DNA from: Bacillota bacterium
Lineage (GTDB): Bacteria > Bacillota > Sulfobacillia > Sulfobacillales > Sulfobacillaceae
Length of the DNA: 49,711 nt
Assembly (NCBI GenBank): GCA_021797675.1
Contig: JAJZZH010000041.1
Location: 1 to 49,711 of the forward strand
Direction of reading: 5' to 3'
Shown here: piece after piece, positions 1-49,711 of the stretch
How positions within the stretch are numbered: position 1 is the first letter of the stretch
Layout: every line of letters begins with the position of its first letter
The notes under the pieces: model-generated
What the model saw: the letters and a program-made list of their open reading frames with translations, nothing else
Told to the model about the DNA's origin: nothing
Database searches by the model: none
Program-made: the position numbers and the translations under genes

Positions 1-126
1 TCGTGGAGAACTGTGTAACTGAGAGCTCGGATGGTGTAGCCGTCTCGCAAGAGGCGGTGAGAGCCGGGAAAAGGTTGCCGGAATTCGCAAACAGAACCCC
101 CCGGCTTTAGCCGTGGGGAGGTTCAG
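1..126 (+). mobile_element. Right end of an IS200/IS605-family (TnpB) element
   Basis: The stretch ends in a C-rich hairpin (about 96-117: CGGC, loop TTTA, GCCG, flanked by CCCC and GGGG) followed by GGTTCAG. This layout is typical of the 3' end of IS605-type elements, where the last part of tnpB also encodes the scaffold of the guide (omega/re) RNA. If so, the element boundary lies near 126 and the bases just after it would supply the RNA guide. Only the terminal ~126 bases are in the window, so the element's size and integrity cannot be judged. Confidence 0.6.
3..110 (+). CDS. tnpB: C-terminal end of TnpB-like RNA-guided nuclease (partial)
   Basis: Of the three plus frames only this one stays open from the window edge; it ends at the TAG at 108-110, inside the terminal hairpin. 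It encodes about 35 residues that are polar and rich in E, R and S, with no zinc-finger or RuvC motif, as expected for the variable tail after the TnpB catalytic core. The assignment rests mainly on position: a stop inside an IS605-type right-end hairpin. The catalytic part lies outside the window. Product identity is an inference from context. Confidence 0.45.
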   Translation: MENCVTESSDGVAVSQEAVRAGKRLPEFANRTPRL

Positions 127-568: not shown

Positions 569-720
569 TCGCGGCACGGATTTGCGGAGCGCGTGGGCGT
601 GAAGCAAAGCTTTCTGTCTCGATGGGAAAATGGCGAGCAGAATCTGACGATTGAAACGGTACGGGGAAACCGATGCTGTCCATCTTCTGCTGGGGATCCA
701 TCCGGCAGCCATCTCTTTGC
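569..720 (+). pseudogene. Decayed XRE-family helix-turn-helix regulator
   Basis: Read from 569 the frame gives GFAERVGVKQSFLSRWENGEQ, a clear Cro/C1 (XRE) recognition-helix region with the SxWExG signature. The sequence continues with LTIETV, then the homology moves to another frame (about 660-715) that reads ETDAVHLLLGIHP. The helix-turn-helix is therefore broken by a frameshift and lacks its N-terminal helix. From 720 to 1102 I see no further gene; the open frames there have no ribosome-binding site or recognisable motif. Confidence 0.5.
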
Positions 721-1062
721 CTTGATCAATCCTCTCCAGTCCTCCGGTTCGCGTCGCATGCGGAATCGGTTCGCGACTTCCTTGCGAGAGTTCTCCTGGA
801 AACCGTACTTCTGGCACCGCGCCTAGTACGTCGGGAGTGTCGGCGGAGCATCCTTCAAGGCGGTGAAACGCTAGGTCGAGGCCCAAGGAACGAAAGCAAC
901 ACCCAGCAAGGCGGCCACAGGCCGTCGCCCAGACCCCCTCTTGGCTTGCGCCTAAGAAGGGGAATGGCGGGCATGATGTTCAACAGCCAACGCTAAGACG
1001 CACCGAGGAATTCGTGCGCATGTCACGAAAATCGTGCGTAGAATCTTGACTTGCTATATCAT

Positions 1063-27961: not shown

Positions 27962-28435
27962 ATGCGACTCACGGTCGGCTTGGGAACAAGGGAGAGCCGG
28001 TCGGATTCCGCCGCAAGGCGGATAGCAGAGGCCAAGCCTTACAAAGTGAGAATCCTGCGAAGACTGACCGGAAGTCTTACTGGTTGATAGTACTCCGAGG
28101 CCGGGAAAGCCGGCCACATGGGGAAGCGGCCAGCAGTCATAGGCGAGTTCTAAGGCCTCAGGGCCCTCTCTTCAATGGGAGGTTCAGGCCTTCATTCAAT
28201 GGAAGGAGTTCCTTGCCATGCCGGCCCTAGAACTCATAGCTGTGCAAGCGGGTGGGAACATCGCGGTCTTCACGCTTGCCTATCGGTCGCCTCACGGTGT
28301 ACATTCCCGAGGAGGCGCGGTTACCTCATCTAGTCATTCAGTAAATCTATCGCTGAAGAGCCCAGTGCGGGAAATCCGCACGCTGGGTTCCGTGGGGGTC
28401 GGGTTGCCCGAGGAGGGCAGCCCTTCTACCCGGAC
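27962..28435 (+). ncRNA. Group II intron ribozyme without an encoded protein
   Basis: The start (ATGCGACTCACGG) corresponds to the GUGCGAC end of a bacterial group II intron, with A for the usual first G. Familiar domain I-III stretches follow: AAAGTGAGAATCCTGCGAAG, TACTCCGAGGCCGGGAA, CCACATGGGGAAGC and GGGAACATCGCGGTCTTCAC. Domain V is at 28358-28390 (GAGCCCAGTGCGGGAAATCC... ending GCTGGGTTC) with the AGC catalytic triad. Domain VI follows (GTGGGGGTCGG to CTACCCGGACC). Total length is about 474 nt. Domain IV has no room for a reverse transcriptase, so movement or splicing would need a maturase supplied from elsewhere. The changed 5' base may impair splicing. Confidence 0.75.
28358..28390 (+). 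ncRNA. Group II intron domain V (catalytic hairpin)
   Basis: A 33-nt hairpin. The lower stem pairs GAGCCCAG-side bases with CTGGGTTC; the upper stem pairs GTGCGG with CCGCAC around a GAAA-containing loop; a bulge near CG precedes the final strand. The AGC triad is at 28359-28361. This is the most conserved part of any group II intron and the best single proof of the call. Confidence 0.8.
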
Positions 28436-40518: not shown

Positions 40519-41427
40519 TTAATCACTCCACCAGGTCTCGTGTAACTCGAATAACTGGTCCTGTGACCTTAACTGGCGCAATCCCCGAACTTCCAATTGC
40601 CTCACCCGTTCCCGTTTGATGCCTAGACGACGGCCGACGGCAATGAGAGTATAAGGGACTCCCTCGGGGTTCAGCCCAAAACGCTCGCGAATAACGAATG
40701 CGTCACGCGGCTTCAGTTTCGACAGAGCATCTTCCAAAATATCGCGGAGAACCGCGGTGCACGCAGTTTCTGCAGGATCCGGAATGGTTTCGTCCGCAAT
40801 CAGGTCCTCAAGCCTCATCTCTTCGTAAAAAATCAACGGCTGATCCAGCGAAGCCAGAGGCGCACGGAGTATCATCAGGACCCTCACCACAGATTCCGAT
40901 AGGCCGAGGGCTTCGACCAAGTCCTGGATGCGCACGCCCCCATTCTTCTGCTCCAGGGCTTCCCAAGTCCTGCGAAATATAGTCATGCGTTCGTGAATAT
41001 GATACGGATAGCGAATAGTGCGGCCTTTTTCATGGAGCCCACGGATAATCGCTGCCCGGATCCACCACATTGCGTAGGTGCTGAACTTCACCTCTTGACG
41101 GTAATCGAATCGATCGACAGCCTGAATGAGACCCAAATTGCCCTCCTGAATTACGTCCAAGAAAGGTAGCCCAACGTTGCGATAGCGTTTGGCAACATAA
41201 ATGACCAGTCGCAGGTTACCGTTAATTAAGGTTTCCCGTGCCTCTTTATCGCCTTGTTCAATGCGCTTTGCCAACTGAATCACGGTATCGTGATCGTCGA
41301 TCTTGGGACATGCTTCAATGTCCGTCAGATACTGGCGGAAGGCGTCGATACTATCGCCTTCATCGCGAACCGAAGATGATTTGCCGTGAGCTTCGGAATC
41401 GGTGATGGTCTGATCAAACCACAACAT
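40519..41427 (-). CDS. Sigma-70-family RNA polymerase sigma factor (RpoD/RpoS-like)
   Basis: A 302-residue primary-like (group 2) sigma factor. Region 1.2 includes DAFRQYLTDIEACPKIDD. Region 2 has LINGNLRLVIYVAKRYRNVG, PFLDVIQEGNLGLIQAVDRF and FSTYAMWWIRAAI (-10 recognition and melting). Region 3 follows. Region 4 ends with YTLIAVGRRLGIKRERVRQL (-35 recognition). It lacks the long region 1.1 of the housekeeping factor. ATG 41427 is preferred, preceded by GAAGAAGGG; further in-frame ATGs upstream lack such a site. It stands alone, with a decayed IscB element behind it. The regulon is unknown; a stress or stationary role is only a guess. Confidence 0.9.
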   Translation of the reverse strand: MLWFDQTITDSEAHGKSSSVRDEGDSIDAFRQYLTDIEACPKIDDHDTVIQLAKRIEQGDKEARETLINGNLRLVIYVAKRYRNVGLPFLDVIQEGNLGLIQAVDRFDYRQEVKFSTYAMWWIRAAIIRGLHEKGRTIRYPYHIHERMTIFRRTWEALEQKNGGVRIQDLVEALGLSESVVRVLMILRAPLASLDQPLIFYEEMRLEDLIADETIPDPAETACTAVLRDILEDALSKLKPRDAFVIRERFGLNPEGVPYTLIAVGRRLGIKRERVRQLEVRGLRQLRSQDQLFELHETWWSD

Positions 41428-41661
41428 CGATGACCCTTCTTCCCCAACAATATCCATCGAACCGTGGATCATTATTGCAGATCACTGCAGCGCGGACACC
41501 TACTAGCCTCACTTGTCGAACGGGTTGGTAATGGTCGACAAACGGCAACTCATAAGTCAAGAGGCTGCTTACACAACTCACCAGACGCCCGCGAGAAGCT
41601 CCAGCCTTTCGGCCTGGGGAGGAAAGCGGGCAGCCGTCGTCAGACGGCCCGCGGTTTGTGT

Positions 41662-42775
41662 TCACATTGTCACCCATCCTGACGTTGAAGAATCCGACCA
41701 TGCCATAGGCAATGCCTTGGGCCGCGCGTAATATCGAAGGAACCTGACGCGGGTGGATACCCGGTCTTTCCATACGCCGGCACACTTGCTGACACCTCGC
41801 CCCTTGGCCAGCCCCACCTGCACGATGGTGGGTAGGGCGGTAAACCGTTCCGGGAGCCTTTCCCCGACCCCCAGGGCATCGTCGTAGTGCGGCTTGGGAC
41901 GGCGAGGGCAATCCGCTGCCTGGTCGTGCGGCCGCGTCGCGCAGTGGAGTTTGGGGTTGCTGTTGAACGCGGTCGAGCGGGTGGGTTTCCCATCGCGCCC
42001 GGCCCTTCAGCTTGGCGAGATCCCCGGGGGCATAGGCTTTGGCCTTGCGGGCCGCGCGTTGCCGGCGGCCGCGGTCCCGGGTGAGAAATCCCTCCAGGGC
42101 CCAGGCGTCTTTCCTGTCATTGCACGGACGACAGGCGATGGTCAGATTGGCTATCCGATCGGAACCTCCCCGGATCGTGGCCGTCCTAGGCTCGGCTTCC
42201 ACCGGTACGTCGACGGTGCAGTCATAGGCGCACCGATGCCCCCACGTCGCCAGCAGGAATTCCCGAACTTCGTAGCCGGGCAGTGTGCCCTGCTGGTCCT
42301 GCACCCCGACGATCTCTGGGGTGTCGAGGGTTTGGGTATCAAAGGCCACGTGCTCCACGCTTAGCGCCGTAATCGGGGCCAAGCGGGTGATCCAGGCGAC
42401 CGCACGGAGCGTCGGACCGACCCGGGCAGTCAGGGAAGGCGGCAACCACCCTTGAGGACGTCGGCGATGGGCAAACCGGGCCGGGCGGTACCGGGGGTGG
42501 CGAACACGCCGGCCCCGGCGTCCATGCACCCGGGCCTGGAGCCGCCCTTCAATGTGGGGGTGGTGCGCGAATTCGCCGAAGCAGATCCCTTGGGCACCGA
42601 TTTGGCGGTCCGGGCCGGCGGTCTTGCTGTCGGGATCGGTGCGATCTTGCAGACCTATAGCGAACGGAAATGGCCGGTGCACCACGGCCCGACCGCGTTC
42701 GCGCAGCGGGTGGGCACGCTTTTCGGGGCAAGGTATGAAGGGTTTCTGGTGAGCGTCTAAGACCAAGACCATCAT
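41662..42775 (-). pseudogene. iscB: IscB RNA-guided nuclease, inactivated
   Basis: IscB is the ancestor-type relative of Cas9. The PLMP-type N-terminus is clear (MMVLVLDAHQKPFIPCPEKR, RGRAVVHRPFPFAI), then RuvC-I (DPDSKTAG), a RuvC-II-like Glu (GEFAHH), the Arg-rich bridge helix (RRVRHPRYRPARFAHRRRP), GWLPPSL, and TPEIVGVQDQQGTLPGYEVR. The HNH region keeps RGGSDRIANLTIACRPCNDR, but the key His appears as Pro (VPVEAEPRTA in place of a xxEHxxP pattern). After about 41980 the frame changes; RuvC-III (KPHYDDALGVGE) is in another frame and about 30-40 residues between are missing. It ends at TGA 41662-41664. The gene cannot make an active nuclease. Confidence 0.75.
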
Positions 42776-43050
42776 CCGCCCTCTCCTTTCAGCCCGGTAG
42801 GGGGCTGGCAACGGACCTGCAAATCGCGCTCCTCGCCCAAGATTCCAACGGGTCGCTACCTCCCTCTACACAGCTAGCCCTACCCCGAGCTTGCGTTTAG
42901 CCGAGGCCCAGAGAGCCGGGAACCGGAGAAGCATTGTCGGACCTGCACCGAAGGAACGGACTCGCTCGCCCCCAAGGTCCCGGCGGCTAAGGCTGGTTAC
43001 CGCTTGGGCTGAGAGGTGCCCGCCGTTGGCCGTGGGTTCTATGACGATGT
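42776..43050 (-). ncRNA. HEARO-type omega RNA region upstream of iscB
   Basis: The ~275 bp directly upstream of iscB on the minus strand contain stretches known from HEARO/omega RNAs as I remember them: CTAAACGCAAGCTCGGGG, TTCGGTGCAGGTCCGACA, and a final hairpin CCAGCCCCC-TACC-GGGCTG followed by AAAGGAG just before the start codon. In intact systems this RNA is bound by IscB, and its 5' end carries the guide taken from flanking DNA. The 5' boundary here is an estimate. Confidence 0.55.
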
Positions 43051-43532
43051 CATTGCTTCCTGCACGTCAGTATAGCCTAGGTGCGCTCACCTGTCCATCT
43101 CTCCTCTGAAAAATTCTTGCCGACCACCACATCTAGATGGCTCAATCCCGGCCACCACAATATCCCGATCGCGACCACGCGACCTTCCGAGGTGGCCGTC
43201 CCCATTTTTCATTCCTGTGGGTGCCCCGAAACCCGGGGCATGGGCGTCTCTTGAGGGTTCCGGATCCCAAAATGTTTTCGGGTTGTTTTCAAGGGACCAT
43301 AGATTCGATATCGAGCGCGTGGCTAGGGAGTTTTTGGCCAACCCCTTGCGAGAACGACTCCTGTGAGTGGGGGTCTCGTAAGAATCCCTCGCCTTTGGGC
43401 GTGGGCGATGTCCAGTTCAAGAAAGATTATAGGATTGAGGCATCAACGATACAGGTCGAACCCATCGCCCCTAAGTTCTGTCCGTGGCGCAGGTGCAAGG
43501 GCCTCTATGCTAAGACCGGCACCTGCAGAACG
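43051..43532. other. Gap with an IS605-type right-end remnant
   Basis: CCCTCGCC-TTT-GGGCGTGGG at 43386-43405, followed by CGATGTCCAG, looks like another IS605-type right end. The open frame leading into it on the plus strand (CENDSCEWGSRKNPSPLGVG) may be the tail of a lost tnpB. A GCAGGTGC/GCACCTGC pair (43489-43526) lies just past the 3' end of the dehydrogenase gene and could help terminate it. No intact gene is seen. Confidence 0.4.
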
Positions 43533-45960: not shown

Positions 45961-46509
45961 GCCCAGTTCTTCGGCAAAGCGTCAGCAGACCCGAGCAACA
46001 ATACGAGATCTTCTGACGTGTTGATGGCATTTCATGCGGAGATGCTGGTTGACGAAGGCCGGCACCTAAACACAATGTCCGCGCATTCCTCCAGTAACCG
46101 GGCATCGCCCTCAGAGCGGATGGCAGGGAAATGGAGCAGCGGCCTCGAAGACCGGCGTAGCCGTGTTTCGACGGCCGCGCTTCAGTTTGGTCGTTAGAGC
46201 CCCCCTGCATAGAACCCACCGGCCTGTGAACGGTTGGGCACCGTGTCACCATTTGCCATCGGGTGGGGATTTTGCGCGGCGTCGCAGATGTTGGCGGGTT
46301 TCCCATCCTATCGTTGCCAAGGTGCCTGCAGGCTGAGTTTTTAAACCTGAAGGTTTCCCGCATTTAACCTACAATGAATGCGCCAAACCGTGATCGGATC
46401 ACGGCCGGGGGAACCACTCAAGGGGTGAATTCGGTTTTTCCGATAGGGATGTCTCGCGCACCCGAACCCGTCAGCTAACCTCGGAGGCAAATTTCGCGAG
46501 GAGGATGTT
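45961..46509. other. Gap with no supported gene
   Basis: About 550 bp. One plus-strand frame of 58 residues starting near 46024 has no ribosome-binding site or recognisable motif. I see no RNA gene or clear repeat. Confidence 0.4.
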
Positions 46510-47377: not shown

Positions 47378-48060
47378 CAACACGAAATGTTCGGGTTCTC
47401 CGGTCGCTTTGGGCCACGCTCGCGGGTGGGCAGTCCATGCCGACTCGGGTTGCTCAAAGAGGCGGCCTGTGTGATTATCCACCGGGTTAGGACAGGTGGG
47501 AGAAGTGGCGCAGGCTCTTTGCCTGCGGTCCGGCCGCGACGCTGAAGGCGAGGTTGGGGAGCGTCAGCGGTGATTCAGCGTCATGGTATCCAGGACAGCA
47601 CGACCCGTGCGCTGGCCGTCATCGCATTTTCGGGCAAAGCGGTTCGAGCTTCCTTGGCAATGCCGCCTTGGAACCTATTCGTGCAAGCGGTGGTTGGCCT
47701 GTTTATCGATGACCCAAACTTGCCAAGTCGACGAATGGGATCGGGGAAAGCCCGAACCTCTTGCACGAAAAGGGGTTTGACCGTGTTGAGGTCGGAAACG
47801 GGTTGATGCTCCCCCGCCTAAAGGCGGGGGATTCTTCCGAGAAACCCACTCGTGGGCGTTCCTCGCAAAGGGCGAACCAACCGCCCGCTACCCGGCCGAA
47901 GGTCTCCGGTTACTTGAAATTGATGATTCGTCACACAGATTTAGCATAAACCTCGTCTTGTCCAAAATCCGGTTTCCGGTGTATGATCGGAAGCGTCGGT
48001 GGCTTATGCTGCCGAGCAAGCAGCATTCCTACGATATTCGATGGAAAAGAAGGGATCACC
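47378..48060. other. Gap with an IS605-type end hairpin
   Basis: A perfect hairpin CCCCCGCC-TAAA-GGCGGGGG at 47811-47830, followed by ATTCTTCC, has the form of an IS605/IS1341-type end. The preceding frames (47570-47810) may be eroded tnpB sequence but show no zinc finger or RuvC motif. No intact gene is seen. Confidence 0.4.
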
Positions 48061-49336: not shown

Positions 49337-49649
49337 ATGCCGGATCAGCCACCGACCGCCCAAGATTTTCCCGACCATTGGGGATTTTATCTTTTGCAGG
49401 CGATCAATCGCTTGGAGGACGAACACCGCCGTGCAGTCGATGCTCTGCGTCAGGACATGCGTGCGTTGGACGCCACGATCAACCAAGAAATCGATGCGCT
49501 GGATACTCAGTTCGATCAAGAGATTGATACGCTGGATGCTAAATTCGAATCAGAAGCTCACCAACCTTCAATACTGGTACTGGGGCACCCTCGTGGTGAT
49601 TGTCATCGGATTTGTCATAGACCCCACGCCTAAAGGCGGGGGCTTGTAG
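49337..49649 (+). pseudogene. Second coiled-coil/tail-anchor protein, frameshifted and cut by an IS end
   Basis: From ATG 49337 a coiled coil is encoded (GFYLLQAINRLEDEHRRAVD, ALRQDMRALDATINQEIDAL, DTQFDQEIDTLDAKF). Near 49552 the frame changes; in the other frame it continues NLQYWYWGTLVVIVIGFVID, a membrane segment preceded by the same Y-W-x-W-G box as in the protein at 11873-12202. The last codons (DPTPKGGGL, stop about 49647-49649) are supplied by the IS605-type left end that begins near 49622. GGGGAAGGAGA precedes the start. The gene is a relative of the 12-kb gene, now disabled. Confidence 0.6.
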
Positions 49650-49711
49650 GGATCTGTCCCTGCAAGTTCCCGGCTTAAGCGGAAAGCCTCTCTTTGGGGG
49701 GCGCTATGACC
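49622..49711 (+). mobile_element. Left end of an IS605-type element, continuing past the window
   Basis: CCCCACGCC-TAAA-GGCGGGGG (49622-49642) is nearly the same hairpin as at 47811. It is followed by CTTGTAGGGA-tctg-TCCCTGCAAG, a second hairpin, as in IS605-family left ends. No transposase start is visible before the window ends. Confidence 0.5.

What the first reader, a model, noticed from the sequence alone, without database searches (positions are those of the whole stretch)
41600..43050. IscB/HEARO relic: an OMEGA RNA-guided nuclease element with a His-to-Pro change in HNH and a scrambled RuvC-III
The minus strand carries PLMP, RuvC-I, RuvC-II-like, bridge-helix, HNH and (in another frame) RuvC-III segments, with a HEARO-like RNA region directly upstream. 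The expected HNH His is replaced (VEAEP), and 30-40 residues before RuvC-III are missing, yet the N-terminal ~260 codons stay open and the RNA region looks well preserved. A retained RNA plus partial protein might still act as a binding or regulatory module, or the RNA may be used by an intact IscB elsewhere.
Basis: partly seen in the sequence, partly recalled or inferred. Interest (0 to 1): 0.75.

Follow-up and report, generated by a model that had tools for sequence, protein, structure and literature searches.

The report
Decayed IscB–HEARO mobile element copy
A broken, neutrally decaying copy of a common mobile element that once encoded the RNA-guided nuclease IscB and its guide RNA; intact copies sit elsewhere in the same genome, so this one is an ordinary molecular fossil.

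Summary
The minus strand at 43045–41578 is one complete IscB/HEARO insertion of 1,468 bp. Both ends match those of intact copies. It is dead. Against an intact copy in the same genome (contig C193), it has two in-frame deletions around RuvC-I, HNH His changed to Pro, a disturbed HNH zinc site, about 80 nt lost before RuvC-III (frameshift), and about 110 nt lost from the C-terminal part.

The suggestion that a preserved RNA plus partial protein might still work is not supported. Substitutions private to this copy fall evenly over codon positions (10/12/13), and 25 of 35 are non-synonymous against 26.6 expected under neutrality. The chance that the frame stays free of stops is 0.60, so the open frame means little. 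The RNA region has changed as fast as the protein region (7.6% vs 6.9%, P = 0.73). It scores 18.8 bits against the HEARO model (threshold 83); an intact copy scores 98.4.

The genome (Sulfobacillus-related Bacillota) holds at least 23 HEARO copies and 36 IscB pieces. The sister copy C88 is also broken. This is a fossil from an older wave of a known element. In passing, I found an adjacent 152-bp repeat that is probably an IS110-family MITE.

The parts
41578..43045 (-). whole decayed IscB/HEARO (OMEGA) insertion, 1,468 bp
   Evidence: starts GTCATAG and ends ...CTTCTCGCGGGC..GGTGA like the intact copies, with unrelated sequence outside
42821..43045 (-). degenerate HEARO/omega-RNA
   Evidence: RF02033 18.8 bits, below the gathering score 83; 74-80% identical to genuine copies; P1 arms pair at 5 of 7 positions vs 7 of 7 in C193
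43046..43065 (-). host flank that would have served as the guide (GTGCAGGAAGCAATGACATC)
   Evidence: position directly 5' of the HEARO start; its 14-nt proximal part has no second exact match in the genome; guide role inferred from the family
41414..42811 (-). open frame of 465 codons; IscB-like only up to about 41930, non-homologous after the frameshift
42635..42637 (-). RuvC-I Asp codon, kept (DPDSKTAG), between in-frame deletions of 39 and 12 nt
42353..42355 (-). RuvC-II Glu codon, kept (VEHVAF)
42188..42190 (-). HNH catalytic His codon, now Pro
   Evidence: all other aligned copies with this region have His; C88 has lost the region
41878..41889 (-). RuvC-III His..Asp (HYDD), present but out of frame
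41578..41630 (-). right end hairpin (TTTCCTCCCC...GGAGCTTCTCGCGGGC) of IS200/IS605-like type

Best explanation
This is a dead, neutrally decaying copy of an IS200/IS605-type element that carried an IscB nuclease gene and its HEARO/omega-RNA. While active, such elements encode an RNA whose guide is the flanking host DNA. IscB then cuts empty copies of the insertion site, which helps the element persist (inferred from the family, not shown here). This copy and its sister C88 come from an older wave in the genome and now do nothing specific.
For: Complete element boundaries. Profile match to IscB. Several independent disabling lesions relative to the intact C193 copy and to relatives in other genomes. 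Window-private substitutions by codon position are 10/12/13, and 25 are non-synonymous vs 26.6 +/- 2.4 expected under neutrality. Changes shared by window and C88 are 32/20/67, i.e. purifying selection earlier. The RNA core evolves as fast as the ORF, 7.6% vs 6.9%, P = 0.73. Sister copy C88 (support 98/91) is also broken and lacks most of HNH. Many other copies exist, including intact ones.
Against: The frame stays open through 465 codons and the two deletions around RuvC-I are in frame, but the simulation gives a 0.60 chance of no stop from the private substitutions. RuvC-I Asp and RuvC-II Glu are kept. No test of expression was possible. The substitution test rests on 35 changes and on parsimony with one sister sequence.
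Confidence: 0.93

Rival explanations
1. The RNA is still made and is loaded by an intact IscB elsewhere in the genome, so the locus acts as a stand-alone guide RNA.
For: An intact IscB with all catalytic motifs exists (C193). HEARO copies far outnumber intact proteins. The RNA core is 74% identical to that of C193.
Against: Its HEARO score is very weak, 18.8 bits vs 98.4 for the intact copy, and it was not among the 23 HEARO matches found in the genome. The P1 stem is weakened. There is no slower change in the RNA than in the dead ORF. The P1 region is much shorter than that of C193.
Confidence: 0.04
2. A nuclease-dead IscB fragment kept as an RNA-guided DNA-binding regulator, in the manner of the TnpB-derived TldR repressors.
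For: HNH is inactivated while about 280 codons stay open; it lies 106 bp upstream of a sigma-factor gene (41472).
Against: No purifying selection. The C-terminal part is frameshifted and deleted. RuvC residues are kept rather than lost. No conserved context: the sigma gene has only distant (43-46%) relatives elsewhere in the family, and no relative carries this insertion.
Confidence: 0.02
3. The lesions are assembly or sequencing errors in a metagenome assembly and the element is intact.
For: The genome is a fragmented 242-contig assembly whose contigs often break inside these elements.
Against: Deletions of 39, 12, 79 and about 111 nt plus dozens of substitutions cannot be sequencing errors, and the private changes run through RNA and ORF alike.
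Confidence: 0.01

Closest known systems
IscB / HEARO elements (ISC group, IS200/IS605-like; OMEGA systems), NCBIfam NF040563 and Rfam RF02033; described as one family in PMC9755519
   Same: Same gene order (RNA then ORF), same protein motifs, same element ends as the intact copies, insertion end at GTGA
   Different: HNH His lost, frame broken before RuvC-III, C-terminal deletions, RNA far below the Rfam threshold
Intact copy at C193:26141-27803 of the same genome (L061)
   Same: 74% identity in RNA, 53% protein identity up to HNH, same ends
   Different: C193 has all catalytic residues and a longer P1 hairpin
C88:2292-3559 of the same genome (L073)
   Same: Closest relative, 78-85% DNA identity, shares a longer linker after HNH
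   Different: Different lesions: lacks most of HNH and its right end
TldR, TnpB-derived nuclease-dead repressors (PMC13418256)
   Same: Nuclease motif lost in an OMEGA-type protein
   Different: TldRs keep RNA and DNA binding and are tied to new partner genes; here there is neutral decay, and the family is IscB, not TnpB

Membership tests
IscB / HEARO element (by descent) | IscB profile match | tested here: met
   NF040563 211 bits, cut-off 175
IscB / HEARO element (by descent) | HEARO/omega-RNA directly upstream | tested here: inconclusive
   18.8 bits, below threshold 83, but DNA-homologous from the first base to genuine HEARO copies
IscB / HEARO element (by descent) | left and right ends of the element | tested here: met
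active IscB nuclease | HNH catalytic His | tested here: not met
   Pro at 42190-42188
active IscB nuclease | RuvC-I, -II, -III in one frame | tested here: not met
   RuvC-III out of frame after a 79-nt plus 1-nt deletion
active IscB nuclease | intact C-terminal TAM-interacting part | tested here: not met
   about 111 nt deleted, remainder in another frame
TldR-like domesticated repressor | purifying selection on the nuclease-dead protein | tested here: not met
   codon positions 10/12/13, non-synonymous 25 vs 26.6 expected
TldR-like domesticated repressor | conserved association with a partner gene | tested here: not met
   no relative carries this insertion next to the sigma-factor or dehydrogenase gene
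stand-alone omega-RNA locus used in trans | expressed RNA bound by IscB | not testable with these tools
   needs RNA sequencing or pull-down

The most novel reading that the evidence does not exclude
The decayed RNA is still transcribed and guides an intact IscB in trans, as one of many dispersed guide loci in this genome.
Probability: 0.04. Interest if true: 0.5.

Novelty: new member of a known kind. Interest (0 to 1): 0.13.

Why it matters
As a single locus it matters little. The genome as a whole is a useful example of a heavy IscB load: at least 23 HEARO copies and 36 IscB pieces, both intact and decayed, in one Sulfobacillus-related genome. That makes it possible to time waves of spread and decay and to ask whether RNA-only copies stay under selection.

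Tried and rejected
Empty-site search: neither flank has a syntenic relative in the family, so the site before insertion could not be shown. Guide search: the 14 guide bases nearest the element have no second exact match in the genome; two places match with one mismatch and the reversed-pattern control also rings, so no target is claimed. RNA folding alone did not separate dead from intact RNA: neither folds better than shuffles. A covariance model of the genome's own copies was not built, because the length (211 or more) exceeds the calibration limit stated for the tool. Idea that the open frame signals function: rejected by simulation. Idea that the adjacent 152-bp repeat belongs to the IscB element: rejected, it occurs alone at about 25 places. 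Idea that this repeat targets ribosome-binding sites because it is bounded by AGGAG: only 2 of 15 copies precede an ORF, as in background.

Full report
What is there. On the minus strand, 43045-41578 is one insertion of 1,468 bp. Its left end (GTCATAGA...CCACGG) and right end (TTTCCTCCCC hairpin ... CTTCTCGCGGGC...GGTGA) match the ends of intact IscB/HEARO copies in the same genome and in other Bacillota genomes, while the sequences just outside are unrelated from copy to copy. A protein profile for IscB matches at 211 bits, above its cut-off of 175, and Pfam RRXRR at 125 bits. Solved IscB structures also match. The RNA model HEARO gives only 18.8 bits at 43045-42821, against a threshold of 83, and is not reported at the standard threshold. 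The region is nevertheless HEARO by descent: it is 74-80% identical in DNA to genuine HEARO copies, and the homology with its closest copies (C88, C202, C182) begins at the same base.

Anatomy of the damage. I aligned the element with the sister copy C88, with C202, with the intact C193 copy, and with four relatives from other genomes. Relative to these it has: a 39-nt and a 12-nt in-frame deletion on either side of the RuvC-I Asp, which itself is kept (42637-42635); RuvC-II Glu kept (42355-42353); HNH His replaced by Pro (42190-42188) inside a locally changed stretch, with the first HNH cysteine pair disturbed; a 79-nt and a 1-nt deletion before RuvC-III, which shift the frame so that the HYDDA motif (41889 onward) is out of frame; and about 111 nt lost from the C-terminal part. 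A tblastn of intact IscB shows the same two frames. The open frame of 465 codons is IscB-like only up to about 41930; the rest is read in the wrong frame.

Is anything kept by selection? I counted substitutions private to the window copy, taking C88 and the outgroups as reference. In 507 ORF sites there are 35, spread 10/12/13 over codon positions 1/2/3. Non-synonymous are 25, where random placement of the same changes gives 26.6 +/- 2.4. The chance of creating no stop is 0.60. By contrast, changes shared by window and C88 fall 32/20/67, the mark of a working protein on the earlier branch. In the RNA core the private rate is 13 in 171 (7.6%), the same as in the ORF (6.9%, P = 0.73), and the P1/left-end region is faster still, 8 of 51. 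The P1 stem pairs at 5 of 7 positions, including wobble pairs, versus 7 of 7 in C193 and C202. So the RNA is not better preserved than the dead gene. Limits: 35 changes, parsimony, one sister sequence.

Genome context. The window is contig C128 of a 4.06-Mb, 242-contig assembly. Named relatives found with the intact protein are mostly Sulfobacillus and unnamed Bacillota MAGs. The genome holds 36 IscB profile pieces and 23 HEARO matches, both lower bounds because contigs end inside copies. Both ends of this window are themselves fragments of such elements. An intact IscB with all catalytic motifs is at C193, and three full-length Y1 transposases exist in the genome. The tree of the RNA and N-terminal region pairs the window with C88 (98/91); most other forks are unresolved. 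No other genome searched in the family carries this insertion, and no flanking synteny was found, so the empty site could not be shown.

Interpretation. The best-supported reading is a fossil of a known mobile element. That active copies use the flanking host sequence as a guide and cut empty sites is established for the family and inferred here. TldR repressors (PMC13418256) are the nearest precedent for a nuclease-dead survivor; the tests for selection and for a conserved partner gene both fail here. That HEARO and IscB are one family is stated in PMC9755519.

A side finding. Just left of the element lies a 152-bp repeat (43252-43101) present about 25 times in this genome, mostly at 88-94% identity. 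Its first 50 bp and its last 12 or so bases are also the ends of a multi-copy IS110-family transposase element in a related genome (L207-L210; the transposase was named from its sequence by eye, not by a profile search). It is therefore probably a non-autonomous IS110-type element, bounded by AGGAG on both sides. Copies with other middles exist in further genera. Whether the middle encodes a bridge RNA was not tested.

Noticed in passing
window 43101-43257 (minus): 152-bp dispersed repeat, about 25 copies in the genome, mostly 88-94% identical, bounded by AGGAG; shares its first 50 bp and its last bases (TTTTTCA[CG]AGGAG) with a multi-copy IS110-family transposase element in a related genome, so probably an IS110-type MITE, perhaps with a solo bridge-RNA-like region.
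   Followed up: partly
window 43290-43405 (minus) and 47811-47872: A second dispersed repeat of about 116 bp, roughly 71-83% identical to dozens of copies in two other genomes of the family.
   Followed up: no
window 1-121 and 49613-49711: Both ends of the window are fragments of IscB/HEARO element ends; the assembly breaks inside these repeats.
   Followed up: partly
L086 (C196:2411-2826) and L091 (C105:14830-15228): Copies in which the HEARO RNA is followed almost directly by the right end, with no IscB gene: RNA-only derivatives of the C57-type element.
   Followed up: no
window 719-886 (+): Relic of a Y1 (IS200/IS605) transposase with two stops.
   Followed up: no
window 28356-28435 (+): Group II intron match (Rfam RF00029), 49 bits.
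   Followed up: no
window 46371-46505 (+): Strong c-di-AMP riboswitch (ydaO/yuaA leader), 89.7 bits.
   Followed up: no
window 40519-41472 (minus): Divergent sigma-70-family gene; best matches elsewhere, in the family and in this genome's own second copy, are only 43-46% identical. The IscB relic ends 106 bp upstream of it.
   Followed up: partly
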